Part shown: positions 183 through 28,693 of the stretch, piece after piece
Layout: every line of letters begins with the position of its first letter
Numbering within the stretch: the stretch's first letter is position 1
Assembly (NCBI GenBank): GCA_024648695.1
Contig: JACAVV010000006.1
Coordinates: forward strand, 1 to 64,000
Direction of reading: 5' to 3'
DNA from: Nitrospina sp.
GTDB taxonomy: Bacteria > Nitrospinota > Nitrospinia > Nitrospinales > JACRGP01
Length of the DNA: 64,000 bases
Program-made: the position numbers and the translations under genes
Notes under the pieces: generated by a model
Told to the model about the DNA's origin: nothing
Seen by the model: only the letters and a program-made list of their open reading frames with translations
Databases searched by the model: none

Positions 183-363
183 ATTTATTTCAAAGGAATA
201 AACAGACGGAACCATTACCCCATTATATAAATACAATAACTAAAACCTATGAGAAGGTTGTTTGGTGTAAATCTGATTTCGTTTTTCCTCGACTTTACCG
301 TAATTATTAATACAATATATTTTTTAAGTAATTGGTTCCACTTGAGAAATAATGAGGAGCTCT
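183..363. other. Gene-free leader of the giant secreted protein gene
   Basis: This AT-rich stretch has no convincing reading frame and must hold the promoter of the downstream gene. GAGGAG at 354-359 is the ribosome binding site that favours the ATG at 364 over the in-frame ATG at 352. Confidence 0.4.
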
Positions 364-3300: not shown

Positions 3301-6093
3301 ACCACGGGCATAACGGGTCCGGTTACCACCACCAACAGTTTACATGGTTCCACCACCTTGGATGATGTGGGTTCGGGGGGATCGGTGACTGCTTTGGGTA
3401 ATGGCGATTATTTAGTCGTCAGCACAAAATTTGACGACCCGGTGGCTGTCAACGCGGATGCCGGTTCTATCACTTTGGGGGATGGAACCAACGGAACCTT
3501 CGGAGCCATTTCCGTGGCGAACAGTATCATCGGGCAAGCGGCAACGACTGGACTAAGCACCATAGTTGGCGAAGACACGGTTAATGATACTTTCGCTTTG
3601 AGGTTTGAGACAGAGGGAACCAATGGAATGGTGCGCATGGGTTGTGGAACCGCTGGACAACTTTCTTTTGCCTGCCTGGCTGGAAGTTCACAAACTCTAC
3701 CATCTTCTTTTCTGACCAATTTGTTGGATCAGGGGACCGATGTCACTCTGCAGGTGAGCAATGATTTGACAGTGACCAGTTCAATTACGGTAAATAACGC
3801 GGGGGGTGATGGCGGCGGACTTACTCTTACCGCCGGTCGATCCGTATTGATTAATGCAAATATAACGACGGATAACGGTCCTCTCACCATTATTGGAAAC
3901 GATTTGCTGGCCAATGGAGTTGTCGATGGTGATAGGGATTCTGGTGATGCCGTCATTACGATGAATACAGGCACAACCATTGATACCGGAACGGGTGCCT
4001 TGAATATAGAACTGCGTCCGGGAGCGGGGAAATCCAATAGTGGCTGTGGAAATTTGGCTCTTGAAACAATCAATTCCGGAGCGTTTACAGTGGATTTACA
4101 ATGTTCCTCCACTTTGGCTTTTGTTGGTCCCGTAAATGCTACATCGGCCACCATTGATTCCGATGACGACATCAGTTTTACGGCCACAGCGGATTTGACC
4201 ACCACGGGACCGATTATTGTTCGCGCAGATTCGGATTCAGTAAATGATGGACCCAGTGGTGGGGCGCTGGCAATGGCGGAAGGAACCGTGTTTAATGCCG
4301 GCGCTTCTACAATACTTTTAAGCGCTGATGAAGCTATTGCATTGGGCAATGTCACCACCACCAATGCAACGGATACGGCAGTGAGCCTGACCTCAAAAAG
4401 TGGAGTCATTGTGGATGTGGCCGCCACCAGTGATGAGAATGTTTCAGCGGCCAGTGGGGGAATTGTGGCAACCACGGCAGGAAATTTTGGTGATCCGGCC
4501 AATTTTATTGAGGGGTCGGTCAATGCCATTGATTTCAGCGGAGTCGGGGCCTCGGACTTTTTTATTGTCCCTGGCACCACCGTGTCTTTTGATGCCGCTT
4601 CAAGTAGCGATTCAGAATCCAATGCCGCGGCAACGGTTCCCGTTTCCCTCAATCAGGTAAATGGAACCGTTACCTTTAATTTTGCTCTGGGAGGTACAGC
4701 AACGGCAGGCGGAACGGATTATACGCTTGATGCTGGAACCTTTACCATTCCCGCTGGAAGTTTGACGCAAAATTTTACCATTCCTGTCGTTGAGGACACG
4801 ATTCAGGAAAATCCGGAAACGGTTGAGATCACCATTTCCAATCCTTCAGACAACGTGACTCTTGGAACGAATACAGTACACACTTTTACCATCAATGATA
4901 ATGATAACGCGCCTTTAGTTGGGTTTGGTTCAACAACTGGAGAGGGTGCCGAATTTATTGGCGCTACAGGAGCTACTGTTTCTTTAACGGGTTCCTCTGC
5001 AATCAATACCATTAGTGTGGATTATGCGGTTACTGGAGGAACCGCAACTACGGGGGGTATCGATTTTACTCTGAATTCCGGAACTTTGACTTTTGACCCT
5101 GGAGAGACGGCTAGTGGTATTCCCATTACTCTGGTGAATGATGAATTGGTTGAAGATAACGAAACTCTTATTATCACTTTATCCAATCCGGTAAATGCCA
5201 CTTTAGGAACCAACACATCGCTTACCTTTACAATTTTTGATGACGACACTACTGCAGAAATCGAATTTGATGAGATTACGTCCAGCGGGAATGAATCGGA
5301 AACTGTCGTGAGTATTCCGGTTTCTATCAACAAAGGTTCCACACAAACCATCACCGTAGATTTTGCGGTTACAGGGGGAACGGCAACTTCCGGGGGCGTG
5401 GACTTTACTCTGACTCCTGCGACTTTATCCTTTTCCCCGAATGTTTTTTCTCAGGAAATTCCTTTATTGGTGATTGATGATGGGAATCCTGAAGGTAGCG
5501 AAACCCTGATTATCACTCTTAGTAATCCGGTAGGCGCTACTTTGGGCACCAACAGCACGCACACTTATACGATTCAAAACGGTGGTGATAACACGTTCAC
5601 CATTGTTACCGAGCCTGGGGAGACTGTGGTTTCTCCATTTTGGCAGATGGATGGAGCGGCTTATACATTTATAGGGGTATCCCACCCTTCTCTACAAGCA
5701 ATGCACTCTGAAATTGGAGTAAAGGCTCAGGCGATTGCAAATACAGGAGAATTACTGGACTCTTCACTGGATTTCACGATTAATTCGGGTCAAACGCAAA
5801 GAGTTTTCATTGTCCGTAGCAATCACCCATTTCTTAATCAGGAAACACTCCCTGACAGTTTGTTCATTCTGGGGGATGATAATGCGAGTGCCCATGGACA
5901 ATTGGTGTTTACGGGAATCGCCTCCAATCCGGAAATGATATTGGGAAGTGGGGGGTATCCCGATATCACCATGTTAAGCTTTTGGGGAGCGGTGGTGGTG
6001 GAAGCCACATCCACTGGGTTCGCTATGGAATTCGTTGGAGACATCATTGATTCCAGAGCTTTGAACCAACCCGGTTTCAGTGGATTGAATTAA
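364..6093 (+). CDS. Giant secreted repeat protein: FHA-like N-terminus, 11 NGNYVV/WDNGG repeats, three Calx-beta domains
   Basis: This predicted exported protein of about 1,909 residues is probably surface-exposed and adhesive. The start at 364 is preferred to 352 because GAGGAG lies just ahead of it. It opens with a hydrophobic signal segment ending near SILAYS. Residues to about 390 are glycine-rich, beta-helix-like sequence resembling filamentous haemagglutinin proteins, closing with the typical LLIDPKDATV. About eleven 58-62-residue repeats follow, each with LTNGNYVV, W-D-N/D-G-G, GAVTWGNG and TNSLHGS elements; they look like the repeat that Pfam calls DUF5650 (my recollection). A bridging region leads to three Calx-beta domains at about residues 1400-1740, with the usual GGTATxGxDFTL and ETLIITLSNP signatures that bind Ca2+ in that family. 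The last 170 residues are unassigned and carry no recognised anchor. Adhesion or matrix function is inferred from architecture. Confidence 0.85.
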   Translation: MRNPSCFLYKAFTLIITLLIYTPSILAYSNQGNPSLKYSLNTSGNTLQIIQEVADLEISTSLLSLKNIEKLEILETIPGSKLRLLVVGSEDLEGLKNIRTKGSLEIRSKSILELKSDMTVEGAHLRITAPHIDTKANLTAPGGTIKIESENKIIFKGTADVSGDQAGLVELKGRVVFILGNLDADGEYQAGQIHVEGFNILQAGKVSADSANGSGGDIDFTFWNRYIDHQNSTVTASSLGKSGGRIRLLGGNTARLFSSGIHQAMGSNEHSKGGEIQFLGADLHLEGSQLDASGQSGGGRIRVGGDFQGGGTLLEARNTSVSAASVLMADARKFGQGGDVVIWSKEVTHFHGKISADSPDKSGRVEISSKGELNPGGTVTAGKLLIDPKDATVDDATGIFPQITLTDPNPNGTAFGDSIVGLTNGNFVVTDPADDVIDTDNGAAYLFNGSTGALISTLTGAVAADEVGFNGVVALTNGNFVVRSSRWDNGAVSNAGAATWGDGSTGVSGTVSSSNSIVGSTASDSVSSTGVTALANGNYVVRSQSWDNGGLANAGAATFALGTQTTGLVIDDTNSLVGASASSFVSSTGVTELTNGNYVVQSTSWDDGGIVNLGAVTWANGNKGISGEVSTDNSLHGSVASDAVGTRVVALSNGNYVVGSTAWDNGGTANVGAVTWGNGTMGTTGPVTTDNSLFGSSANDGIGSVLTALTNGNYVTAAAFWDDVDGGLANVGAATWGDGSMGTTGEVTTTNSLHGTTAEDRIGVEGVIALTNGNYVVLSDLWDNGGISNAGAATWGDGSNGSMGISGPVTSTNSLVGTMATDSIANGGGVALTNGNYVIISTLWDDGGTADVGAVTFGNGTMGTTGPVTTDNSLHGSTLTDRIGEDGVTALTNGNYVVASNLFDDGGTANAGAATWVDGSTGLPVGPVTTTNSLTGSTGDDEVGIGGVVALTNGNYVVLSPSWDDGGTSDVGAVTFGNGTTGITGPVTTTNSLHGSTTLDDVGSGGSVTALGNGDYLVVSTKFDDPVAVNADAGSITLGDGTNGTFGAISVANSIIGQAATTGLSTIVGEDTVNDTFALRFETEGTNGMVRMGCGTAGQLSFACLAGSSQTLPSSFLTNLLDQGTDVTLQVSNDLTVTSSITVNNAGGDGGGLTLTAGRSVLINANITTDNGPLTIIGNDLLANGVVDGDRDSGDAVITMNTGTTIDTGTGALNIELRPGAGKSNSGCGNLALETINSGAFTVDLQCSSTLAFVGPVNATSATIDSDDDISFTATADLTTTGPIIVRADSDSVNDGPSGGALAMAEGTVFNAGASTILLSADEAIALGNVTTTNATDTAVSLTSKSGVIVDVAATSDENVSAASGGIVATTAGNFGDPANFIEGSVNAIDFSGVGASDFFIVPGTTVSFDAASSSDSESNAAATVPVSLNQVNGTVTFNFALGGTATAGGTDYTLDAGTFTIPAGSLTQNFTIPVVEDTIQENPETVEITISNPSDNVTLGTNTVHTFTINDNDNAPLVGFGSTTGEGAEFIGATGATVSLTGSSAINTISVDYAVTGGTATTGGIDFTLNSGTLTFDPGETASGIPITLVNDELVEDNETLIITLSNPVNATLGTNTSLTFTIFDDDTTAEIEFDEITSSGNESETVVSIPVSINKGSTQTITVDFAVTGGTATSGGVDFTLTPATLSFSPNVFSQEIPLLVIDDGNPEGSETLIITLSNPVGATLGTNSTHTYTIQNGGDNTFTIVTEPGETVVSPFWQMDGAAYTFIGVSHPSLQAMHSEIGVKAQAIANTGELLDSSLDFTINSGQTQRVFIVRSNHPFLNQETLPDSLFILGDDNASAHGQLVFTGIASNPEMILGSGGYPDITMLSFWGAVVVEATSTGFAMEFVGDIIDSRALNQPGFSGLN
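1600..3545 (+). repeat. Eleven-copy ~180-nt in-gene tandem repeat array
   Basis: Successive units encode NGNYVV...WDNGG...GAxTWGNG...TGxVTTxNSLxGS at roughly 174-186-nt spacing. The first and last units are degenerate. A 51-nt stretch is identical at 2392-2442 and 2935-2985, three units apart, indicating recent duplication or gene conversion between units. Confidence 0.85.
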
Positions 6094-13974: not shown

Positions 13975-15087
13975 TTATTCATTGATAACTGATGGATATC
14001 TGACATCAAGCCCAAATCCGGAATCATTGATTCTTTTTTGCATTTTGTAAAGGCCATTATCTGAAAATTGAATGGGATTAGGAATGATATCCCATTGCAA
14101 TAAATAGATTCCAAAGGCTCCTTCCTGGGCAAGCAAATTTTTCGAAACCCTGTTGGCCAGGGTTAAGGCAACGCGACTCAATATACTGGTCTCTCCCACC
14201 TGAGCGCCAATGATTATGGGGATCTTCAGCTTTAATGCGTTCTCAGCAATTTCAATGGATCTTAACAATCCGCCCATTTTTGAGACTCTTAGATTTATCA
14301 CCCAGGCTTTCGGTATGTTTTTTAAAAACCGAAATTGTTTAAAGGTACAGAAGCTTTCGTCCAGAATAATTTTTAACCCCGTCCCTTTGTAGACTTGAAC
14401 CAAACCTTCGAAATCTGCAGTTTTCAAGGGTTCCTCTATAGCGAAAACAGGATGGGGCAGTGCCCTGATATAAGCTATTGCTTCTTCAGGATACGCCCAT
14501 AAATTATTCGCATCCAACCTGACTCTAAGGGCAGTAGAAGGAATAGCCTTTATTTGATGCATTCGATCTTTGTCTCCTTTTAACTCGCCGGACAGTTTGA
14601 GTTTGAAATCGAACATATGGAGCTGTTTATAAAACGCCAACTGCTTTTGAAATGTTTTGCTACTGCCAATCCCTAACACAGCGGTATATTGAAACTTTCC
14701 CGTCACTTCAGGAAATCCCAAAAGAATATCCACCGATTGGCCGGTTTCTTTTCCCAACAAATCCAACAGCGCAATTTCCAGCGCGCAAAAAGCAGCTGGA
14801 TTGGAATCGATGTCTTCCCTGTGAGATAAAATCCAGGCCTTTAAATCGCCAAGGGTCTCGATTCTAATCAGTTCCTTTCTGAATTCATCAAAGAATGCCA
14901 TGCACGATTCAATGGATTCTCCCGTAACGTATTCGCGGGGACAACCTTCTCCATAACCCTTTAAACCATTATCAGATTCGATAATTGCCAGTACGCTCTG
15001 GGTTTCTGATCGCTCGGCTGAGGCATGCTTGAATACCACCTGGAATGGAATTTTTAGCTGTTCTAAATGAAGGTTTTTAATCTTCAT
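13975..15087 (-). CDS. Enolase-superfamily enzyme, MLE/dipeptide-epimerase-like
   Basis: This 370-residue member of the muconate-lactonising branch of the enolase superfamily would abstract the proton alpha to a carboxylate using Mg2+. The active site is intact: K-x-K at 162/164 (FKLKLSG), metal ligands Asp192 (RLDANNLW), Glu218 (AIEEP) and Asp243 (ILDESF), and the opposite-face Lys270 (VSKMGG). Its closest feel is to L-Ala-D/L-Glu epimerases. However, the D-x-D motif of true dipeptide epimerases near the last barrel strand reads WDII (Asp333) here, so the substrate may differ. An o-succinylbenzoate synthase-like role is the main alternative. It is the last gene of a four-gene overlapping operon and overlaps the GH3 ligase gene by 11 bases. 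Confidence 0.82.
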   Translation of the reverse strand: MKIKNLHLEQLKIPFQVVFKHASAERSETQSVLAIIESDNGLKGYGEGCPREYVTGESIESCMAFFDEFRKELIRIETLGDLKAWILSHREDIDSNPAAFCALEIALLDLLGKETGQSVDILLGFPEVTGKFQYTAVLGIGSSKTFQKQLAFYKQLHMFDFKLKLSGELKGDKDRMHQIKAIPSTALRVRLDANNLWAYPEEAIAYIRALPHPVFAIEEPLKTADFEGLVQVYKGTGLKIILDESFCTFKQFRFLKNIPKAWVINLRVSKMGGLLRSIEIAENALKLKIPIIIGAQVGETSILSRVALTLANRVSKNLLAQEGAFGIYLLQWDIIPNPIQFSDNGLYKMQKRINDSGFGLDVRYPSVINE

Positions 15088-16759
15088 TGTTTAGACCGTA
15101 AGCAGAAAAGTCGAATGAGCAATCCCTGGATTGCAACAGCCGAACAAATTTAAATTGGCTTTCACGCTGGCCTTTTGCAATCAAACTGTTTTTAAAAGCC
15201 TCGCCACAACCCTTTTTCAGGAAAATAATTTTCGTCGGGTTCAAACGTTGGCTTAGCCGCTTGGTCTTGAATTCTAAGTTGGACGCAAACAACTGTTCTT
15301 CAAATTTCAGCTCTATTTCTTTGAGCGGATCAGATTCGATATAAAGCCTGTATTCCATTCGGGATGCATCGGCTATCATTAAAAAAAACTCGAATTCTAA
15401 ATGAGTTTGTTTCTTAAGGGTCTCCAGTGCTCGAATCACCTGGTATTCACTTAGTTTCTCTCCGGTAAGGTTGGTGATTCCCTTTCCTTTCTGTACAAAA
15501 GTGATGGTCGGGGTGGCGTTAAATTTCCCGGTCACTTCTATAATGTCATTAATAAAATAGCGGTATAAACCGTTGAAAGTGGTGACGATAAGGTAATACT
15601 GTTTGCCCGTCTCAATTTGATTCAAAAGGAGAAACTTTTTGTCCGGCTTATCCCATTCGAGAACTTCCACAAATTCGAAAAAGTTTTCCTGGAAAGTTGG
15701 AAGGATGATGTTGTGTTCAACATCGATCGTAAGGCCTCCCGTAAACTCACTCGAAAGGTAGCCAAGCTCCACGATTCGGGTATGGGAGGGCAACTTGCTT
15801 TTCAATTTTGGAATCAGGGTTGTGCAGTTGCCACCGGTCCACGTGGCTATGGCCTTCAGATGTGGCCAGAAATCCGCAAAGGTGAATGAGATCTTCTCTT
15901 GCAATATTTTGGTTAACTCCTGGGCCCGATTTGGTTTTACTTTTAAATAGTTCTGAGAAAGCGCTTCCGAAGATTTGCCCAAATGGTTCAAATCACCCGT
16001 ATCCAGAAAAGACAACAGGGTCTTCTTATTATTTTGAATCACCTCCAACAACCTCAAGAATGTAGAAGGATTTGCGCTGGCAAAGAAGGTGATATTCTTC
16101 TCATTCAAACTGTACGCGGCCATTAACAGATACTTTAAGTGGTAGTCTTCAATGGCTAGAATTTCGGTGGGAAGTACATATTTTTTCTTTAACAGCCAGG
16201 GCATGCTTTCCAGCAGAAGACCCGACATAGAACCAAAGGGTGTTCCTGTGCCCAGTTGGCCTTCGATCACTGGACTCCCGACAGCTAAAATTGGACCATC
16301 AAACACTCCCTTCACTCCATTGTATTTTACCCAGGAAAATAAGGCTTGATTGAGTTTTAAATAGTTAAGAGTGGATTTTAGAATAGGGATGTTCTTAGGT
16401 CGCCCGGTGGTTCCACTAGTTTGGGAATACAAAACGGGATTTTCGTAATTGATGGCAGGAGTTTTATTATTCTCCTGGTCATCAATATACTTTCGAAGGC
16501 TTTCATAGGTTTGAACGGGAACACGTTTGCAAAGTTCCGGGTGACCTTGAATGGTCTTGAAGTCATGCTCAATACCAAACTCGGTGGATTGTTGCCTGGC
16601 CAATATTTTTTCAATAACCTTATTTTGTATCTGTTGAGGATCGCGTGTATTTCGAATGAAAGGTTTCCAGTAAAACCTTTCAATGAACTTCATTTGCAAT
16701 CGGAGCAAGGCTTGATAGCCCCATTGGATTAAAGCCGTTCCCCAATCAGACATTTTCAA
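15077..16759 (-). CDS. GH3-family acyl-acid amido synthetase
   Basis: This 560-residue protein is of the GH3 auxin-responsive family, adenylate-forming ligases that activate a carboxylic acid with ATP and join it to an amino acid. The ATP-binding motif YSQTSGTTGRPKNIPI is near residue 110. GLYRYFINDIIEVTGKF lies at about 420, in the family's usual place, and is followed by the hinge and C-terminal domain with LTGEKLSEYQV. The length is typical. It is cytoplasmic. Bacterial members are rarely characterised, and neither the acyl acid nor the amine is known here. It overlaps the desaturase-type gene by 14 bases and the epimerase gene by 11, so they are translationally coupled. An acyl-amino-acid or peptide-like product further acted on by the epimerase is an inference. 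Confidence 0.88.
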   Translation of the reverse strand: MKMSDWGTALIQWGYQALLRLQMKFIERFYWKPFIRNTRDPQQIQNKVIEKILARQQSTEFGIEHDFKTIQGHPELCKRVPVQTYESLRKYIDDQENNKTPAINYENPVLYSQTSGTTGRPKNIPILKSTLNYLKLNQALFSWVKYNGVKGVFDGPILAVGSPVIEGQLGTGTPFGSMSGLLLESMPWLLKKKYVLPTEILAIEDYHLKYLLMAAYSLNEKNITFFASANPSTFLRLLEVIQNNKKTLLSFLDTGDLNHLGKSSEALSQNYLKVKPNRAQELTKILQEKISFTFADFWPHLKAIATWTGGNCTTLIPKLKSKLPSHTRIVELGYLSSEFTGGLTIDVEHNIILPTFQENFFEFVEVLEWDKPDKKFLLLNQIETGKQYYLIVTTFNGLYRYFINDIIEVTGKFNATPTITFVQKGKGITNLTGEKLSEYQVIRALETLKKQTHLEFEFFLMIADASRMEYRLYIESDPLKEIELKFEEQLFASNLEFKTKRLSQRLNPTKIIFLKKGCGEAFKNSLIAKGQRESQFKFVRLLQSRDCSFDFSAYGLNNED

Positions 16760-17618
16760 TTCCGTTTTGAAAGGGAGTTTTCAGTTGACCTATAAACCCC
16801 ATTGGGTAGGCTCTGTTTTTTAATCCTAAATCTCCAACCAATCGATGTTCTGGTAAAAATCTGGTCCCGAAAACAAGATCCCAAACAATCAGGTTGTTGC
16901 CGTAATTGCTATTGGATTCTTCTGGGATTTTGGAGTGGTGCCAGCGATGTAATTCGGGTCCGCTCACCAGATAATTGAGCCAGCCAAGGCGCAATTCAAT
17001 ATTGCAATGCTGGAAAAAACCATTGATGGAATAAAATATAAAATAGAGCGCCATGACTTCTTCACTGACTCCCAACAGAATAAAGGGAAAAGCATCGAAC
17101 CCATACTGGATCGCTTTTTCAATGGGATGAAATCGTGCAACATTCACCCAATAAAGCTTATGAGGGGAATGATGCACCGCATGTAAACGCCAAAGCAATG
17201 GCCATTCATGGCAGGCCCGGTGAAGCCAGTAGCGAAAAAAATCTGCGGTGAGCACCATAAGAGCGGTTTGAAATCCTGTCGTCAATTGGTGGGGCCAAAG
17301 CCCCTTGAGGTTCGATGAATTTAAAAGGTCGGTTTCCAGAAGAGTAAAGGCCACCAACATAGATAATATTCGGGGCAAAACAATTTGGACGGCCGCCATG
17401 TAAATTGCATCCTGGGTGACATCATTTTTCGAGCTCAACCATACTCGTCGATGCGGAAACTTAAATTCAAGAAAGGTGATCAGACTCGCCGCTGAAATAA
17501 CCGTCAAATATGTAGCATACGAATGTTCTAATCCAAAGTGGATCATGGTAAAAAAACAAATAAATCCGAAAGCCATAACCCAGGGATAAACTCTTTGAAT
17601 AGTTTGGGAGGGATTCAT
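16746..17618 (-). CDS. Sterol-desaturase/fatty-acid-hydroxylase superfamily membrane enzyme
   Basis: This 290-residue integral membrane di-iron enzyme has the superfamily's histidine clusters: HRACH, HAVHH (as LHAVHHSPHK) and LHRWHH, plus HPIEK and FFQHCN. These bind two irons and use O2 to hydroxylate or desaturate lipid-like substrates. Several membrane helices occupy the N-terminal half. The gene overlaps the upstream membrane protein by 4 bases and the GH3 ligase by 14, so the four genes form one unit. Hydroxylation of an acyl chain or isoprenoid that feeds the GH3 reaction would make sense, but the sequence does not fix the substrate. Confidence 0.88.
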   Translation of the reverse strand: MNPSQTIQRVYPWVMAFGFICFFTMIHFGLEHSYATYLTVISAASLITFLEFKFPHRRVWLSSKNDVTQDAIYMAAVQIVLPRILSMLVAFTLLETDLLNSSNLKGLWPHQLTTGFQTALMVLTADFFRYWLHRACHEWPLLWRLHAVHHSPHKLYWVNVARFHPIEKAIQYGFDAFPFILLGVSEEVMALYFIFYSINGFFQHCNIELRLGWLNYLVSGPELHRWHHSKIPEESNSNYGNNLIVWDLVFGTRFLPEHRLVGDLGLKNRAYPMGFIGQLKTPFQNGIENV

Positions 17619-18049: not shown

Positions 18050-18211
18050 ATGGCCGGTTGTCCCAATAATGAGGAATATTTTAAATCCATAATAATGGAA
18101 TATTGAAACAAGAGCCAATTTGATTGCAGATAGCTTTCTTGACTAAGGCACATGGATGAATTTTCATTGACAATATCATGATTTGGAGTATTCTCCTGTT
18201 TAACAATTTAA

Positions 18212-18355
18212 TAGACGCTTTGCCAAAGGGAAGACGGTGAAACTCCGTCGCGGTCCCGCCGCTGTAACCGGTGACGAAACCTGAAATCATCCACTATTTG
18301 CTTGTCAAATGGGAAGGAACAGGGAGTAGATTGAACCGGGAGCCAGAATACCTTG
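18212..18355 (+). promoter_or_regulatory. Cobalamin riboswitch 1 (upstream of btuF operon)
   Basis: The leader carries the hallmarks of the cobalamin (B12-element) aptamer: the conserved GGGAA...GGTGAAACTCCGTCGCGGTCCCGCCGCTGTAACCGGTGACGA core, a CCACT element near 18290 and the terminal B12 box GGGAGCCAGAATACC at 18338-18352. Orientation and position, about 100 bases before btuF, fit control of the whole cob operon. A terminator-like hairpin follows, so it probably acts at transcription. Confidence 0.93.
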
Positions 18356-18410
18356 TTGTCATTTATCGTCTTCAACTCTTCGTGGACTGAGAGGATGAGG
18401 AAAAATATTT

Positions 18411-20144: not shown

Positions 20145-21380
20145 ATGAACAAAAAAAATATTTTAATCTCAGGTGGATGTCGAAGTGGTAAAAGCCGGCA
20201 TGCACTGGCTCTGGGTCAGAAGTTTACCGGCCGAAAGGTGTTCCTGGCCACGGCTGAAATTTTTGACGATGAAATGAAATCCCGTGTGCAAAAGCACCGC
20301 GAGGAAAGATCCGACGACTGGATCACCATAGAAGAACCTTTGGACCCATTAGCGGCAATATTAAAAGAAAAGGATAAAGCAGATGTGATCCTTTTGGATT
20401 GTCTCACCCTTTGGGTTTCTAATTTATTATTAAAGTACGACGATGAAAAAGTTGTGCTGGAGATTGTGAATGAACTGTTGGAAGCCCTGCCTGTATTACC
20501 CTGTTCCCTGATGTTTATCACCAACGAAGTGGGTGGGGGAATCGTACCGGAAAATAAACTGGGACGGGATTTTAGGGATCTGGCCGGACTGGTCAATCAG
20601 AGAATCGCAGAGGTTTTTGATGAAGTTGTTTATATGGTTTCTGGAATTCCTGTCAAAATCAAGGAACCAATCCAGCAAAATGGTGCAGGAAACAAAAAAT
20701 CGACGCATGAATTTTCGAAAGAAAAAAAACAGGGTTTGTACGAAGCCATTTATCAAAGAAGAGATATGCGACATTTTTTGCCAGACCCTGTGGATCCCGA
20801 GGTACTGGGTAGAGTTTTGCATGCGGCCCATCATGCAGGTTCGGTGGGGTACATGCAACCCTGGAGCTTTATGGTTATTCAGGACCCCGAAATTAAAAAA
20901 CGGGTGGCCGATAACTTCTCGGAAGCCAGTCGGGAGGGTGCTGAACGCTTTGAAGGAGAACGGAAGAAATTGTACGAATCTCTCAAGCTGGAGGGTATTC
21001 AGGATGCCCCGGTTAATATATGCGTGACCTGTGATCGCAACCGATCCGGACCCAATGTTTTGGGTCGCAACACCATGCTGGAGATGGACCTTTTCAGTAC
21101 TTGTTGTGCGGTTCAAAATCTGTGGCTGGCGGCCAGAGCGGAAGGGTTGGCAGTGGGTTGGGTGAGTATACTGTATCCGGAACGCCTGAAAGCTGATTTG
21201 GGCATTCCGGACTCAATTGAAATCGTGGCCTATCTTTGTGTTGGGCACACCGAATCGTTTTACAAAAAACCGTTGCTGGAATCGGCGGGATGGGGCAAGC
21301 GCCTTGACTTGAAGGACCTGGTTTTTTATGACCGTTGGGAAAGCAAGGAATGTGACAATCCCTTATTGCTCCCGGAATAG
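20145..21380 (+). CDS. cobP-bluB: Fused adenosylcobinamide kinase/guanylyltransferase and 5,6-dimethylbenzimidazole synthase (CobP-BluB)
   Basis: One reading frame encodes two enzymes. Residues 1-172 (ATG at 20145; the longer frame starts at TTG 20127) are CobP/CobU: Walker A GGCRSGKS, guanylylated His in RVQKHREER, LLDCLTLWVSNLL and FITNEVGGGIVP. After a polar linker, residues about 195-411 are BluB: YQRRDMRHFLPDPV, AGSVGYMQPWSF and GPNVLGRNTMLEMD. BluB is the flavin enzyme that cuts FMNH2 with O2 to give DMB. The kinase half makes AdoCbi-GDP and the BluB half makes the lower-ligand base; both products converge at CobS. There is no stop or frameshift at the junction. The overlap of DMB formation with nucleotide-loop assembly makes the fusion functionally sensible. 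Confidence 0.93.
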   Translation: MNKKNILISGGCRSGKSRHALALGQKFTGRKVFLATAEIFDDEMKSRVQKHREERSDDWITIEEPLDPLAAILKEKDKADVILLDCLTLWVSNLLLKYDDEKVVLEIVNELLEALPVLPCSLMFITNEVGGGIVPENKLGRDFRDLAGLVNQRIAEVFDEVVYMVSGIPVKIKEPIQQNGAGNKKSTHEFSKEKKQGLYEAIYQRRDMRHFLPDPVDPEVLGRVLHAAHHAGSVGYMQPWSFMVIQDPEIKKRVADNFSEASREGAERFEGERKKLYESLKLEGIQDAPVNICVTCDRNRSGPNVLGRNTMLEMDLFSTCCAVQNLWLAARAEGLAVGWVSILYPERLKADLGIPDSIEIVAYLCVGHTESFYKKPLLESAGWGKRLDLKDLVFYDRWESKECDNPLLLPE

Positions 21381-21388
21381 GATGAAAA

Positions 21389-22561
21389 ATGCCTCTGCTC
21401 ACTCTTAGTGAAAACAACCCCAGGGAAATAATAGACAAAATCGCCTGGGAAAAGATTCCCTCGTATCCCGAGCATGGAGGAAATCCTTCTTCCCTGGCCA
21501 AGGCCTTTGATGTCCGGGTAGAAAAACTGGTCGATTTCAGTGCCAGCCTAAATGGGTTTGGTATTCCTTCGGTTATCAAACCCATTATGGAACATTGGCA
21601 GGATGCGCTTTCCCATTATCCCGAACCCGAGTCGAAGTCTTTCATTCAAAAACTGTCCTCAAATCTGGAAGTTCCTTCAGGGCAATTATTAGCCTGCAAT
21701 GGTTCAACAGAATTGATTCATCTGCTTCCCAGGATATGGCCTCGCGGGACAAGTGTGCTTTCGGTGGTTCCCTGTTTTTCGGAGTACAGTCGGGCATTCA
21801 GGTCTTACCGAATACCGGTTCAAACCTTTCACTACGATTTTCAAAACAATCATTCGAATACTTTTAATCAGCTGAAACATTCTATTAAATCTTTGCCAAG
21901 CTTGGGAGGAATTATCATTGGTCATCCGGCGAGTCCTATGGGAATGTTATGGAATCCTACTGAAATTTGCGAATTAAAAAGCTTGTGTGCGACCAAAAAT
22001 ATATTTTTTGTGGTCGATGAAACATTTATCGAATTCGCTGGCATGGAATATTCATCCTGGGATGAGAACTATATATTCTCCAAACATATAGTCATACGGT
22101 CCCTGACAAAGCTGTACTCTATTCCCGGAATTCGTTTGGGGTACGGGGTTATGGTTCCTCAGTGGAAATCCCTTATTGAATCCAGACAAGTTCCCTGGTC
22201 GGTCAATAGTCTGGCCCAGCAAATAGGTACCGCCGTTTTGGATGATTCCACTTTTGTGTCTTCCAGTCGCGAATTTTTATTACGGGAAAAAAGCTATCTT
22301 GTGGAACAACTGAAAACCATTGGCGGAATCAAAGTGTTTCCCTCTGATGCCAATTTTCTTCTTTTTAAACTGGAAACTGAAGACCAAACCTTTCCAAAAC
22401 GCTTTTTTTTGAGTCTGCTGAAAAAAGGAATTGTGATCCGCTGTTGTCAAAACTTTGAGGGAATGAATCCTTCCTTTTTCAGAATCATGGTCCGTGACCG
22501 CGAGGATAATTCTTTGTTGATATCAAACATACAAGACATTATGAATGAAGAGGGTTATTGA
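21389..22561 (+). CDS. cobC: Threonine-phosphate decarboxylase-like PLP enzyme of cobalamin synthesis
   Basis: This 390-residue class I/II aminotransferase-fold protein is related to histidinol-phosphate aminotransferase. The N-terminal HGGNPSSLAKAF...VDFSASLNGFG is the hallmark of the CobC/CobD group, which decarboxylates L-threonine O-3-phosphate to (R)-1-amino-2-propanol phosphate, the linker attached by CbiB. The PLP lysine is Lys241 in RSLTKLYSIPGIRLGYG. AGGA precedes the ATG at a good distance. It sits between cobP-bluB and cbiB, exactly where the enzyme supplying the aminopropanol arm is expected. The name varies between cobC (aerobic nomenclature) and cobD. Confidence 0.9.
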   Translation: MPLLTLSENNPREIIDKIAWEKIPSYPEHGGNPSSLAKAFDVRVEKLVDFSASLNGFGIPSVIKPIMEHWQDALSHYPEPESKSFIQKLSSNLEVPSGQLLACNGSTELIHLLPRIWPRGTSVLSVVPCFSEYSRAFRSYRIPVQTFHYDFQNNHSNTFNQLKHSIKSLPSLGGIIIGHPASPMGMLWNPTEICELKSLCATKNIFFVVDETFIEFAGMEYSSWDENYIFSKHIVIRSLTKLYSIPGIRLGYGVMVPQWKSLIESRQVPWSVNSLAQQIGTAVLDDSTFVSSSREFLLREKSYLVEQLKTIGGIKVFPSDANFLLFKLETEDQTFPKRFFLSLLKKGIVIRCCQNFEGMNPSFFRIMVRDREDNSLLISNIQDIMNEEGY

Positions 22562-22566
22562 ATTGA

Positions 22567-23499
22567 ATGGAGGGCCAATATTTAATCGCAGTCGCATTGG
22601 TTTTGGATATGGCTTTAGGAGACCCTCAGGGATTTCCACATCCTGTGCGGGCTATCGCCTGGCTTGCTTTAAAGTTGGAGACCGGGTTAAGGTCGACCAG
22701 AGTCCCGTTGGTTTTTGCAGGTGGCCTGACCGTCTTTCTGGTCGTCACAACAAGCTATCTGGTTTGTTATTGGGTGTTGCAATGGTCAAGGGCCATTCAT
22801 CCTGTGTTGGGGGAGATCCTATTAGTGCTGTTGATTTATACAACGCTATCCCTCCGCGGTTTATACGATGCGAGCCAACCTGTTATGATGGCATTACTTG
22901 TAAAAGATTTACCTTTGGCCCGCAAGCATTTGTCTCAAATTGTGGGTCGGGATACCAATTTGCTGGATCAAAACGGAATCATTAGGGCAACCGTGGAAAC
23001 GGTTTCGGAGAATACAATTGACGGGGTGGTAGCGCCTTTGTTTTTTACCTTTTTAGGCGGTGCGCCCCTGGCTGTCGCCTACAAAGCAATCAACACAATG
23101 GATTCTTTGTTTGGTTATAAGAATGAACGGTATGAACAATTTGGAAAAGTGGCCGCGCGATTGGATGATGCGGCCAACTGGATTCCCGCCCGATTGGGAG
23201 GTGTATTGATGGTCCTCGCCGCCGGAATATGCGGATTTCAATTCGTTACATCTTTGAAAGCGTTTTTCAGAGATCGGTTGAATCACAGCAGTCCCAATGC
23301 AGGCCATCCGGAAGCTGCCGCCGCGGGTGCTCTGGGAATAAGTCTTGGTGGACCTTTACATTATTTTGGCCAGATGGTATCCAAACCCTATATTGGTGAA
23401 AATTTACGCGAACCTGTTATTGAAGATATTCAACGAGCGCAGGTATTGATGTTGGCAACATCATTGGTAAGTATCTTTTTGTTTGTAATTATTTTTTAG
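22567..23499 (+). CDS. cbiB: Adenosylcobinamide-phosphate synthase
   Basis: This 310-residue membrane protein attaches aminopropanol (phosphate) to adenosylcobyric acid. Signatures are ALVLDMALGDPQGFPHPVRAI at the N-terminus, IGRDTNLLD-like VGRDTNLLDQNGIIRATVETVSENTIDGVVAPLF, YKAINTMDSLFGYKNERY and SPNAGHPEAAAAGAL. The length and several hydrophobic helices are typical. It is known as cobD in Pseudomonas nomenclature. It is five bases downstream of cobC and ends the first riboswitch-controlled block. Confidence 0.95.
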   Translation: MEGQYLIAVALVLDMALGDPQGFPHPVRAIAWLALKLETGLRSTRVPLVFAGGLTVFLVVTTSYLVCYWVLQWSRAIHPVLGEILLVLLIYTTLSLRGLYDASQPVMMALLVKDLPLARKHLSQIVGRDTNLLDQNGIIRATVETVSENTIDGVVAPLFFTFLGGAPLAVAYKAINTMDSLFGYKNERYEQFGKVAARLDDAANWIPARLGGVLMVLAAGICGFQFVTSLKAFFRDRLNHSSPNAGHPEAAAAGALGISLGGPLHYFGQMVSKPYIGENLREPVIEDIQRAQVLMLATSLVSIFLFVIIF

Positions 23500-23525
23500 A
23501 GGTCTAATATTTAAGTCCATACACA

Positions 23526-23662
23526 TTCCGGTTTAGGGAAGTTCGGTGAAAAACCGACACTGTCCCGCAACTGTGACGGGAAGAAAACCGTTAGATGCCA
23601 CTGTCTTGCAATAGATGGGAAGGTGCGGTGAGTAAAGGCCCCAAGTCAGGAAACCTGGCCGG
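23526..23662 (+). promoter_or_regulatory. Cobalamin riboswitch 2 (upstream of btuB)
   Basis: This is a second B12-element, with GGGAAGTTCGGTGAAAAACCGACACTGTCCCGCAACTGTGACGGG, an exact GCCACTG at 23597-23603 and the B12 box AAGTCAGGAAACCTGG at 23643-23658. It lies 34 bases before btuB. No T-tract hairpin follows. The leader runs straight to AAAGGAG and the ATG at 23696, so translational control is more likely than termination. Confidence 0.94.
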
Positions 23663-23695
23663 AATGATTTTAACTTTCGAGGAAAAGGAGTCGAT

Positions 23696-25567: not shown

Positions 25568-26959
25568 ATGATAGCTTCTCATAAAATTCCCAACGGGGTC
25601 ATAATAGCCGGAACGCAAACTTCAATCGGCAAGTCATCGGTTTCCGTAGGGTTTATGAGAGCCCTCAAAAAAAGGGGCTTGCTTGTGAGCCCCTTTAAGG
25701 TTGGCCCGGATTACATTGATCCCGGACACCATTCGCGCGCCTGCGCCCGACCCAGCTATAATCTGGATTCCTGGATGTGTTCCAAAAAGTACGTTCGTGC
25801 CTTGTATGACGAGGTTTCTGCCCAGGGAAACATCTCCGTTGTAGAAGGCGTCATGGGATTGTTCGATGGCGCTTATTCCAACCGGGATACCGGTTCTACG
25901 GCAGAGATGGCCAAACTCCTGAACCTGCCCGTTATCCTGATAGTGGATGGATCAGGAATGGCCCGTTCATTTGCCGCTATCGTGAAAGGTTTCGAGGAAA
26001 TGGATACCCAAGTGAAAATTTTGGGAGTCATTGCCAACCGGGTTCGTTCTCCCGGTCACGCTCAGATTTTGAAGGAGGCATTAAAAAAATACACCTCTTG
26101 CAAGTTTCTAGGTAACCTGCCTCACCGTCCTGAACTGGAAATCCCCAGTAGGCACCTGGGCCTGCATATGGGTCATGAGCAAATGGATACCCTGTACGAC
26201 AAGTGGGCGGATCATATTGAGAATCATTTGGATGTGGCCTGGATATTAAAACAGTTTGGAGTTAAAGGAGGTAAGAAGGTATCTTCCGCTCAGAAAGAAC
26301 TGCCTGCACGATGGAAAGTATCCAAACCCTCGCCATTTAAAATCGCCATTGCCAGGGATGAAGCGTTCCAGTTTCTTTATCAGGACACATTAGATTTGAT
26401 CCGATACCTGGGTGGGACTATAGAGTTTTTTTCACCTGTCAAAAGTCTTAAACTGCCCGTTCAAATCAATGCGATATATTTTCCGGGAGGATATCCCGAA
26501 CAGTATGCAGGGAGGCTTTCAAAAAATAAAAAGCTGATTTCAGAAATTTCCGATTTTGCTTTGCAGGGAGGTCCTATTCTTGCCGAATGCGGGGGTTTGA
26601 TGTATTTAGGAAAGGAATTAATTGATGAAAATGGTAAGAGTCATCCCATGGTCGGTTTATTCGATTATAGCACTTCAATAGCAAACAAAAGCCTGACCTT
26701 GGGCTACCGTTCATTGCGAGGAAGTTTGAAAAGCAACAACAGTGCAGGTCTTTTAAAGGGGCACGAATTTCATTATTCTAGTTTTTTAAAGAATCCACAT
26801 AAACCTCAATGGACACATTTTCAAAAGAATAAAGGTAAAGATACCCGGGATGGTTATGTTTTCAAGAACTGTCATGCCTGGTACTCCCATATCTACTGGG
26901 GCACGGTGCCAAAGCTTTTTAAAAGTCTATTGGGTCTTAAAATTAATGAAAGCTGTTGA
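25568..26959 (+). CDS. cbiA: Cobyrinic acid a,c-diamide synthase
   Basis: This 463-residue two-domain amidase has an N-terminal ATP-binding domain (IIAGTQTSIGKSSVSVGFMRAL, then PFKVGPDYIDPGHHSRA and VVEGVMGLFDG) and a C-terminal glutamine amidotransferase. The latter has Cys341 in ILAECGGLMYLG after YFPGGYPEQYA, and a histidine in HEFHYS. It amidates the a and c side chains of cobyrinate using glutamine and ATP. It follows btuB by 21 bases. Its presence shows that the cell handles incomplete corrinoids, not just complete vitamin. Cobyric acid synthase is not in the window. It overlaps cbiZ by 14 bases. Confidence 0.94.
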   Translation: MIASHKIPNGVIIAGTQTSIGKSSVSVGFMRALKKRGLLVSPFKVGPDYIDPGHHSRACARPSYNLDSWMCSKKYVRALYDEVSAQGNISVVEGVMGLFDGAYSNRDTGSTAEMAKLLNLPVILIVDGSGMARSFAAIVKGFEEMDTQVKILGVIANRVRSPGHAQILKEALKKYTSCKFLGNLPHRPELEIPSRHLGLHMGHEQMDTLYDKWADHIENHLDVAWILKQFGVKGGKKVSSAQKELPARWKVSKPSPFKIAIARDEAFQFLYQDTLDLIRYLGGTIEFFSPVKSLKLPVQINAIYFPGGYPEQYAGRLSKNKKLISEISDFALQGGPILAECGGLMYLGKELIDENGKSHPMVGLFDYSTSIANKSLTLGYRSLRGSLKSNNSAGLLKGHEFHYSSFLKNPHKPQWTHFQKNKGKDTRDGYVFKNCHAWYSHIYWGTVPKLFKSLLGLKINESC

Positions 26960-27632
26960 TACCGATTACCCCCAAAAAGGTTTCCAATTGTATCTGGATA
27001 AATCCGCTCTGGTTTTAAGATTTGAGCAATTATGGAGTGTATTGAGTTGGGCTCCTTATAAAGGAGGCCTGGTACGATCCCAATGCATTTTTAACCATAA
27101 AAGAGAACACTTTGAAGATGAGGAATTGGAAACGATTTTTCAAAAAGAAATCCGCCGTTTGAAAATTCCCGATGATTCCGTGGGTCTTCTCACCGGGGCA
27201 GATATCGAAAAATATCAAAGCCGGTTGCTTGAAAAAAACGGTCTGTGGGTGTTCGCGATAGCTACAGCGGGACTGTCGAATGCAAGGTCCGTGGGAGATC
27301 GTGCCGATGTGGAAAGAGCGTCAAGTCAGGCCGGCACTATAAACCTTATTTTAATTTGCAATGCATTACCAAAGTTGGAAGGCCAACTGGAAGCCGTGCA
27401 TGTAGCCTCCATGGCCAAGACTAAAGCGATAATGGAAGCAGGAATTAAAAGTAAAAAATCCAATCAACCGGCCACGGGAACGGGAACCGATTGCATCGTA
27501 CTTGCCTCCAGTGGTGAAATTCATGAAAATTTTTGCGGGATGCATACCGTGATGGGAGAACTCATAGGGGAGGCAGTTCAGCAAGTGATACAGGCGGCGG
27601 TGGAAAAATCTTTGCAAGGATCGTCTTCATGA
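26946..27632 (+). CDS. cbiZ: Adenosylcobinamide amidohydrolase (corrinoid remodelling)
   Basis: The 228-residue form beginning MKAVDTDYPQ at 26946 is preferred to the longer frame from 26850, which would run far into cbiA. It has CbiZ features: SWAPYKGGLVRSQCIFNH, VGLLTGADI, IATAGLSNARSVGDRADVE and the C-terminal TGTGTDCIVLASS. CbiZ cleaves the aminopropanol linkage of adenosylcobinamide or unsuitable cobamides to give cobyric acid, letting the cell rebuild the nucleotide loop with its preferred base. It overlaps cbiA by 14 bases and cobT by 4 (ATGA), so all are co-translated. Confidence 0.92.
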   Translation: MKAVDTDYPQKGFQLYLDKSALVLRFEQLWSVLSWAPYKGGLVRSQCIFNHKREHFEDEELETIFQKEIRRLKIPDDSVGLLTGADIEKYQSRLLEKNGLWVFAIATAGLSNARSVGDRADVERASSQAGTINLILICNALPKLEGQLEAVHVASMAKTKAIMEAGIKSKKSNQPATGTGTDCIVLASSGEIHENFCGMHTVMGELIGEAVQQVIQAAVEKSLQGSSS

Positions 27633-28693
27633 ATTTGATGGAAACCATTCAATCCATTAAGGGAGTTGATCGAAATGACATTGATCGCGCTCAGGCCCAT
27701 TTGGATAATCTAACGAAACCACCGGGAAGCCTGGGTCGAATGGAAGAAATGGCCCGGCGTTATGTGGCCATTATGGGGAACCCGCCACCGTTACTCAAAA
27801 ATAAAACGGTTTTTGTGTTTGCGGCAGATCATGGAATCACCGAAGAGGGCGTCAGTGCTTACCCTTCAGATGTGACGGCTCAAATGGTTAAGAATTTTCT
27901 ATCAGAGGGTGCGGCGATTAATGTCCTCGCCAAACATGTCGGAGCCGAAGTGGTGGTGGTCGATATGGGTGTAAATCACAAATTTGAACCACATTCCTCC
28001 CTGATAAATAATAAAATAGCTTACGGAACAAATAATTTCCTTAATGGTCCAGCTATGACACGTCAGCAGGCTGAGGAATCCCTGGAAGCAGGAATTCAAT
28101 TGGCCAAGGAATGGGTTGAAAAAGGAGTACAATTATTGGCCCCAGGTGAAATGGGAATAGGTAACACCACGGCAAGTTCCGCACTGTTAAGCGTATTCGG
28201 AGAGTGCTCAGTCAAGGAAGTTACGGGAAAAGGCACTGGCATCAATGATGAAAAACTCAGTCAAAAGGTGCAACTGATAGAAAAGGCATTGGATTTTCAT
28301 CAACCAAACTCAAACGATCCCATAGAGGTACTTGCAAAAATTGGCGGGTTTGAAATTGGCGGTATGGCCGGATTGATTCTTGGTTCTGCTTTGCAAAAGG
28401 TTCCCGTGGTGATTGATGGATTAATATCCGGTGCCGCCGCAGTGCTTGCATTTCGGCTTAATCCTGATGTGAAGGATTATATATTTTTATCTCACCGCTC
28501 CCAGGAGCCTGGCCATAAAGTATGTTTTAACCTGTTAAACCAATCACCCATTTTGGATCTGGATTTACGGCTGGGCGAAGGAACCGGTGCTGTGTTGGCG
28601 ATGAATCTTATTGAGGCCGCCGTAAAAATCTATCTGGAAATGGCAACCTTTCAAGGAGCTGGTGTTTCCAGAGCGGAAGAAAATTCAGGCTAG
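27629..28693 (+). CDS. cobT: Nicotinate-nucleotide--dimethylbenzimidazole phosphoribosyltransferase
   Basis: This 354-residue enzyme starts at 27629, where the ATGA overlaps the cbiZ stop and AAGGA lies upstream. It makes alpha-ribazole phosphate from nicotinate mononucleotide and DMB. Motifs include LTKPPGSLGRMEEMARR, FAADHGITEEGVSAYPSDVTAQMV, APGEMGIGNTTASSALL, and the C-terminal LRLGEGTGA holding the catalytic glutamate. With BluB made upstream as part of CobP-BluB, the cell can make and activate its own DMB. It is the last gene of the second cobalamin block. Confidence 0.95.
   Translation: MNLMETIQSIKGVDRNDIDRAQAHLDNLTKPPGSLGRMEEMARRYVAIMGNPPPLLKNKTVFVFAADHGITEEGVSAYPSDVTAQMVKNFLSEGAAINVLAKHVGAEVVVVDMGVNHKFEPHSSLINNKIAYGTNNFLNGPAMTRQQAEESLEAGIQLAKEWVEKGVQLLAPGEMGIGNTTASSALLSVFGECSVKEVTGKGTGINDEKLSQKVQLIEKALDFHQPNSNDPIEVLAKIGGFEIGGMAGLILGSALQKVPVVIDGLISGAAAVLAFRLNPDVKDYIFLSHRSQEPGHKVCFNLLNQSPILDLDLRLGEGTGAVLAMNLIEAAVKIYLEMATFQGAGVSRAEENSG

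What the first reader, a model, noticed from the sequence alone, without database searches (positions are those of the whole stretch)
20145..21380. CobP-BluB fusion protein
A single frame joins the AdoCbi kinase/guanylyltransferase with the O2-dependent DMB synthase. The two activities feed the same final condensation at CobS, so fusing them coordinates both branches. BluB is usually a separate gene, and I do not recall this fusion being characterised.
Basis: partly seen in the sequence, partly recalled or inferred. Interest (0 to 1): 0.7.

Follow-up and report, generated by a model that had tools for sequence, protein, structure and literature searches.

The report
CobU–BluB fusion enzyme in nitrite oxidisers
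A marine nitrite-oxidising lineage has joined two vitamin B12 enzymes, one that activates the corrin ring and one that makes the lower-ligand base, into a single protein that is conserved across nearly the whole order and that I could not find described in the literature held here.

Summary
Window 20145-21380 is one open frame of 411 aa: residues 6-172 are CobU/CobP, residues 190-391 are BluB (261 bits, curated cut-off 150), joined by a 16-residue polar linker. It is not an assembly error: the same frame is intact in 28 genomes of the order (Nitrospinota), one of them a single 3,921,641-bp contig, and a 29th is broken only by contig ends. Catalytic residues of both halves are invariant and both halves are under purifying selection. 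Two genomes of one genus have cobU and bluB adjacent, in frame, separated by a stop codon; the BluB tree places them outside the fused forms, suggesting fusion by stop-codon loss. Two others keep cobU but lack bluB. Samples of Pseudomonadota and Bacillota gave no other native case. The locus is a riboswitch-controlled cobamide salvage/remodelling cluster in a genome without detectable CbiC. BluB/CobT fusions are already known, so this is a new variant of a known kind.

The parts
20145..21380 (+). cobU-bluB fusion gene, 411 aa, including stop
   Evidence: full-length homologues in 28 genomes
20160..20660 (+). CobU/CobP domain (residues 6-172): AdoCbi kinase / AdoCbi-P guanylyltransferase
   Evidence: PF02283 4.6e-57, PRK05800 above cut-off; VIA-align Z 19.5-23.7 to CobU structures
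20172..20195 (+). P-loop GGCRSGKS (residues 10-17)
   Evidence: G10, G11, R13, S14, G15, K16 invariant in 27 fusions
20295..20297 (+). His51 codon, equivalent of Salmonella CobU His46 (guanylylation site)
   Evidence: alignment to 1c9k; invariant; His46 role: Thomas et al. 2000, as cited in PMC8749415
20664..20711 (+). interdomain linker (residues 174-189), polar, no in-frame ATG
   Evidence: 15% mean pairwise identity against 57% (CobU) and 71% (BluB); residues 177-188 pLDDT under 50
20712..21317 (+). BluB domain (residues 190-391): FMNH2- and O2-dependent DMB synthase
   Evidence: TIGR02476 261.5 bits, cut-off 150; 2isj E 3.5e-73
20763..20765 (+). Asp207 codon, equivalent of S. meliloti BluB Asp32
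   Evidence: alignment to 2isj; invariant in 27 fusions; catalytic role recalled, not tested
21165..21167 (+). Ser341 codon, equivalent of S. meliloti BluB Ser167
   Evidence: alignment to 2isj; invariant in 27 fusions; catalytic role recalled, not tested
18187..18374 (+). cobalamin riboswitch upstream of btuF-cobS-cobU/bluB-cobD-cbiB
   Evidence: RF00174, 88.8 bits
18458..19384 (+). btuF-like corrinoid-binding protein
   Evidence: PF01497, PRK03379
19384..20130 (+). cobS, AdoCbi-GDP ribazoletransferase, directly upstream
   Evidence: TIGR00317 above cut-off; cobS precedes the cobU-bluB gene in every order relative examined
21389..22561 (+). cobD, threonine-phosphate decarboxylase-like
   Evidence: TIGR01140 259.9 bits, below cut-off 290.55
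22567..23499 (+). cbiB, AdoCbi-P synthase
   Evidence: TIGR00380 above cut-off
23513..23676 (+). second cobalamin riboswitch, upstream of btuB
   Evidence: RF00174, 93.3 bits
23696..25546 (+). btuB-like TonB-dependent corrinoid receptor
   Evidence: TIGR01779 272 bits, below cut-off 599.7 but best hit
25568..26959 (+). cobB/cbiA, cobyrinate a,c-diamide synthase
   Evidence: PRK01077 475.8 bits, above cut-off
26850..27632 (+). cbiZ, AdoCbi amidohydrolase (ORF start uncertain; domain at 27018-27584)
   Evidence: PF01955 1.5e-45
27629..28693 (+). cobT, NaMN:DMB phosphoribosyltransferase
   Evidence: TIGR03160 462.6 bits, above cut-off

Best explanation
This is a genuine fused protein with three activities. 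Its N-terminal CobU half phosphorylates AdoCbi and guanylylates AdoCbi-P to AdoCbi-GDP. Its C-terminal BluB half breaks down FMNH2 with O2 to give DMB. DMB is then activated by CobT (same locus), and both branches meet at the membrane enzyme CobS, encoded directly upstream. The organism appears to be a corrinoid salvager/remodeller: BtuB/BtuF import, CbiZ trimming, CbiB/CobD rebuilding, riboswitch control, and no detectable CbiC. Shown: the architecture, its conservation, intact catalytic residues in both halves, purifying selection, and locus context. Inferred: both halves are active. Inferred with less certainty: the flexible tether fixes a 1:1 supply and keeps BluB at the proposed CobS-anchored nucleotide-loop assembly complex, so that DMB, which has no other known use and antagonises flavins, is made where and when corrinoid is being activated. 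The fusion most likely arose once within this order by loss of the stop codon between adjacent in-frame cobU and bluB genes.
For: Domain calls above curated cut-offs for both halves. P-loop, His51, Asp207 and Ser341 invariant across 27 fusions. 29 of 31 BluB-bearing genomes of the order carry the fusion: 28 contiguous, one across contig ends. Low dN/dS in both halves, with a fast-evolving linker. cobS lies immediately upstream in every order relative examined. Two g8 genomes show the unfused in-frame state (TAA, 9 nt, ATG) and branch outside the 28 fused BluBs (94/87). Salvage context: no CbiC, CobQ and a PduO-type adenosyltransferase present, in line with the published B12 auxotrophy of Nitrospinae (PMC8026999). 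A CobS-anchored multienzyme complex is proposed in PMC8749415; DMB as flavin antagonist in PMC10468695.
Against: No activity has been measured for either half. Two relatives (G008, G015) keep cobU without bluB and two keep the genes separate, so the fusion is not indispensable. The operon already co-regulates the genes, so a selective benefit of tethering is not proven. The g8 basal position is not strongly supported (94/87) and conflicts with its taxonomic family, where g5 is fused.
Confidence: 0.8

Rival explanations
1. The fusion is real and both halves work, but it is selectively near-neutral: a stop codon between tightly packed co-transcribed genes was lost and the joined form was simply inherited.
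For: Adjacent in-frame unfused form exists; linker evolves freely and is flexible; the fused enzymes do not catalyse consecutive steps; unfused and BluB-less states persist in relatives.
Against: Kept intact in 29 of 31 genomes over deep divergence (about 55-65% identity), where a single nonsense mutation with a nearby start could undo it.
Confidence: 0.35
2. The C-terminal half is a BluB-like flavoprotein that no longer makes DMB (for example a CobR-like reductase or a structural/regulatory domain).
For: The nitroreductase superfamily has many BluB look-alikes; the domain has a one-residue deletion after the Asp207 motif and AGSVG in place of APSVG relative to S. meliloti BluB.
Against: 261 bits against a TIGR02476 cut-off of 150; Asp207 and Ser341 invariant; no other DMB synthase over the cut-off in the genome while cobT is next door; lowest dN/dS of the protein in most pairs.
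Confidence: 0.07
3. The two halves are separated after or during translation (internal start or cleavage in the linker), so the cell contains ordinary CobU and BluB.
For: The linker is disordered in the model and poorly conserved.
Against: No in-frame ATG in the window's linker, and no evident shared motif in the 28 fused linkers.
Confidence: 0.05
4. Assembly or sequencing artefact that removed a stop codon or frameshift.
For: Draft assembly in 56 contigs.
Against: Same intact frame in 28 genome assemblies, one of them a single contig of 3,921,641 bases, the length published for the chromosome of Ca. Nitronauta litoralis.
Confidence: 0.01

Closest known systems
BluB/CobT2 fusion of Propionibacterium freudenreichii (PMC4657239)
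   Same: BluB fused to a nucleotide-loop assembly enzyme through a short linker; proposed to coordinate DMB supply with its use
   Different: There BluB is N-terminal and the partner is CobT, the next enzyme, so DMB can be channelled; here BluB is C-terminal and the partner is CobU, on the other branch, so direct channelling is impossible
Stand-alone BluB of Sinorhizobium meliloti (PDB 2isj)
   Same: Aligns over nearly the whole domain, with Asp32 and Ser167 equivalents conserved
   Different: Not fused; small differences around the Asp32 motif
CobU of Salmonella / CobP-type enzymes (PDB 1c9k, 1cbu, 8yep)
   Same: Full CobU domain with P-loop and the guanylylated histidine
   Different: Those proteins end after the CobU domain; this one continues into BluB
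CobT-BluB fusions in Bacillota genomes G980 and G1149 (this work)
   Same: BluB as C-terminal domain of a late cobamide enzyme
   Different: The partner is CobT, not CobU; BluB only about 46-49% identical

Membership tests
CobU/CobP (bifunctional AdoCbi kinase / AdoCbi-P guanylyltransferase) | Full-length domain match above curated cut-off | tested here: met
   PF02283 192.7 bits (cut-off 27), PRK05800 187.6 bits (cut-off 161)
CobU/CobP (bifunctional AdoCbi kinase / AdoCbi-P guanylyltransferase) | P-loop and guanylylated histidine (Salmonella His46) | tested here: met
   GGCRSGKS residues 10-17 and His51 aligned to His46; His51 invariant in 27 fusions
CobU/CobP (bifunctional AdoCbi kinase / AdoCbi-P guanylyltransferase) | Kinase and guanylyltransferase activity | not testable with these tools
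   needs purified protein
BluB (DMB synthase) | Match above the equivalog cut-off TIGR02476 | tested here: met
   261.5 bits, cut-off 150
BluB (DMB synthase) | Asp32 and Ser167 equivalents (S. meliloti numbering) | tested here: met
   Asp207 and Ser341, invariant in 27 fusions
BluB (DMB synthase) | BluB/nitroreductase fold | tested here: met
   AlphaFold2 model aligned to 2isj with Z 18.9, rmsd 6.0, 185 residues; model pLDDT 73, C-terminus weak
BluB (DMB synthase) | O2-dependent conversion of FMNH2 to DMB | not testable with these tools
   needs purified protein
BluB/CobT fusion enzymes | BluB and CobT in one chain | tested here: not met
   the partner domain is CobU; cobT is a separate gene at 27629-28693

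The most novel reading that the evidence does not exclude
The fusion of CobU (a trimer in the solved structures, as I recall) with BluB (a dimer with its active site between the two units) forces a closed higher-order assembly, such as a D3 hexamer or a cage, which forms the soluble core of a CobS-anchored cobamide assembly complex in Nitrospinota. Both halves of B12 would then be made at one site, and escape of DMB, a flavin antagonist, would be limited.
Probability: 0.2. Interest if true: 0.65.

Novelty: new variant of a known kind. Interest (0 to 1): 0.4.

Why it matters
It is a natural link between the corrin-activating branch and the lower-ligand branch of B12 assembly, conserved across a lineage of globally important nitrite oxidisers reported to be B12 auxotrophs. 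Fused, split and BluB-less forms occur in close relatives, so a long-standing question (do the late cobamide enzymes act as a complex?) can be tested with one protein and natural controls. It also looks like a clear example of gene fusion by stop-codon loss. It predicts that many Nitrospinota can turn imported incomplete corrinoids, and where CbiZ is present pseudocobalamin, into true cobalamin under oxygen.

Tried and rejected
Assembly error: rejected (28 intact assemblies). Wider occurrence: searches of 398 Pseudomonadota, 385 Alphaproteobacteria and 398 Bacillota genomes and the plasmid collection gave one further full-length hit, in alphaproteobacterial genome G689. It lies on a 7,751-base contig that carries the Nitrospinota operon and is 86% identical to genus g10, so it is most likely a contaminant contig; recent transfer is not excluded. 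The strict E-value limits of the last two surveys (1e-74, 1e-55) and the cut listing of the first could hide divergent fusions, and Nitrospirota could not be surveyed except for plasmid records, where Manganitrophus BluB is separate. Apparently long hits in G101, G462 and Methylobacterium bullatum, and the long frames in G266 (BluB) and G418 (CobU), were read or searched and are not CobU-BluB fusions. Bradyrhizobium plasmid hit: separate cobU, cobS, bluB. The CobU tree could not resolve where the unfused g8 branches.

Full report
What is there. The frame 20145-21380 (+) codes for 411 aa with no internal stop. Residues 6-172 match CobU (PF02283, 4.6e-57; PRK05800 above its cut-off) and residues 190-391 match BluB (TIGR02476, 261.5 bits, cut-off 150). 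Solved relatives are S. meliloti BluB 2isj for the second half and CobU 1c9k/8yep for the first.

It is not an artefact. The full-length protein is found in 28 genomes of the same order. Relatives with public names (L033, L034) are Nitrospinae MAGs. One genome, G006, is a single contig of 3,921,641 bases, the length given for Candidatus Nitronauta litoralis in PMC8026999. In a 29th genome (G036) the CobU piece runs to a contig end well inside BluB (window residue 236) and the rest lies on another contig. Identity to the window protein is about 55-65%. In close pairs dN/dS is 0.06-0.12 for the CobU part and 0.016-0.04 for the BluB part (the closest pair, with very few changes, gives 0.10 and 0.30), while the linker changes faster. 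Mean pairwise identity among fused proteins is 57% (CobU), 15% (linker) and 71% (BluB).

Distribution. Of 77 Nitrospinota genomes, 64 are of the window's order. Of these, 31 have a BluB over the cut-off: 29 fused and 2 separate. None has a second BluB over the cut-off. Two more have CobU but no BluB. Eleven genomes elsewhere in the class have ordinary CobU, and one of them (G061) an ordinary BluB. So the fusion belongs to the order. In genomes G011 and G013 (genus g8) the halves are in the same frame but separated by TAA, 9 nt, then an ATG for BluB. In G008 and G015 bluB is missing exactly between cobU and cobD; G008 sits inside the fused genus g4 and its CobU still ends in a linker-like tail (KTSAKYDRR), so it looks like a domain lost from a fusion.

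Origin. In the BluB tree the two g8 proteins fall outside the 28 fused ones (support 94/87), and an AU test rejects grouping g8 with g5, the other genus of its taxonomic family with BluB (p 0.005). The simplest reading is that adjacent in-frame cobU and bluB were the starting state and the stop codon was lost once. Because g8 belongs to a family in which g5 is fused, a transfer of the unfused cluster into g8, or a later split, is not excluded. The CobU tree does not resolve this.

Active sites. P-loop residues, His51 (Salmonella His46, the guanylylation site according to Thomas et al. 2000, as cited in PMC8749415), Asp207 (S. meliloti Asp32) and Ser341 (Ser167) are invariant in 27 fusions. The roles of Asp32 and Ser167 are from memory. 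An AlphaFold2 model (27 sequences, pLDDT 73) gives two domains with a low-confidence linker at 177-188. VIA-align gives Z 19.5-23.7 to CobU structures and Z 18.9, rmsd 6.0, 185 residues to BluB 2isj.

Setting. The order of parts is riboswitch, btuF, cobS, cobU/bluB, cobD, cbiB, riboswitch, btuB, cobB, cbiZ, cobT. cobS is immediately upstream in every order relative examined. CbiC, needed for making the corrin ring, was not found in the window's genome although it is 97% complete, while CobQ and a PduO-type adenosyltransferase are present. This fits the reported B12 auxotrophy of Nitrospinae (PMC8026999), which lists bluB and cobS in a cobinamide salvage route; the passages read there do not mention the fusion. 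CbiZ, the remodelling amidohydrolase of Rhodobacter sphaeroides (PMC7733943), is in this window and in 10 other genomes of the phylum. Some fusion-bearing relatives do have CbiC, so the fusion is not restricted to salvagers.

How it most likely works. CobU makes AdoCbi-GDP; BluB makes DMB from FMNH2 and O2; CobT converts DMB to alpha-ribazole phosphate; CobS joins the two. The fused sites sit on parallel branches, so the fusion cannot pass a substrate from one to the other, unlike BluB/CobT2 of P. freudenreichii, where channelling was reported (PMC4657239). What a tether can do is fix the dose of BluB to CobU and hold BluB at the nucleotide-loop assembly complex that PMC8749415 proposes to be anchored by CobS. 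Keeping DMB local would make sense because it is a flavin antagonist (PMC10468695). This benefit is inference; a neutral fusion is a serious rival.

What is new. Seven searches of the held literature found no description of a CobU-BluB protein, and none of six name variants occurs in it; subscription papers are mostly missing from that library. BluB fused to a late cobamide enzyme is already known (BluB/CobT), and CobT-BluB fusions were seen here in two Bacillota genomes. I therefore file this as a new variant of a known kind.

Noticed in passing
L138:2568-4427 (-) and L139:3220-4965 (-): Two Bacillota genomes (G980, G1149) carry CobT-BluB fusions with CobT first, the reverse order of the published P. 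freudenreichii BluB/CobT2.
   Followed up: partly
L031, L032 (G011, G013): cobU and bluB in the same frame separated by TAA + 9 nt + ATG: an apparent pre-fusion or split state; the BluB tree conflicts with the taxonomic family of these genomes.
   Followed up: yes
L095 (G008) and L080 (G015): bluB precisely missing between cobU and cobD in two otherwise near-complete genomes with no other BluB over the cut-off; they may use another lower ligand or imported DMB.
   Followed up: partly
L137 (G689:C8, 7751 bases): A Nitrospinota B12 operon, its fusion 86% identical to that of genus g10, sits in an alphaproteobacterial genome on one short contig: probably contamination, possibly recent transfer.
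   Followed up: partly
window 26850-27632: cbiZ lies inside the B12 locus here; in the other genomes that have both cbiZ and the fusion, its coordinates lie away from the fusion.
   Followed up: no
window 13975-17618 (-): A GH3-family protein (all three GH3 domains) lies between a fatty acid hydroxylase and an enolase-superfamily (MR_MLE) gene; possible biosynthetic cluster.
   Followed up: no
window 352-6093 (+): 1,913-aa protein with ten DUF5650 repeats and Calx-beta domains.
   Followed up: no
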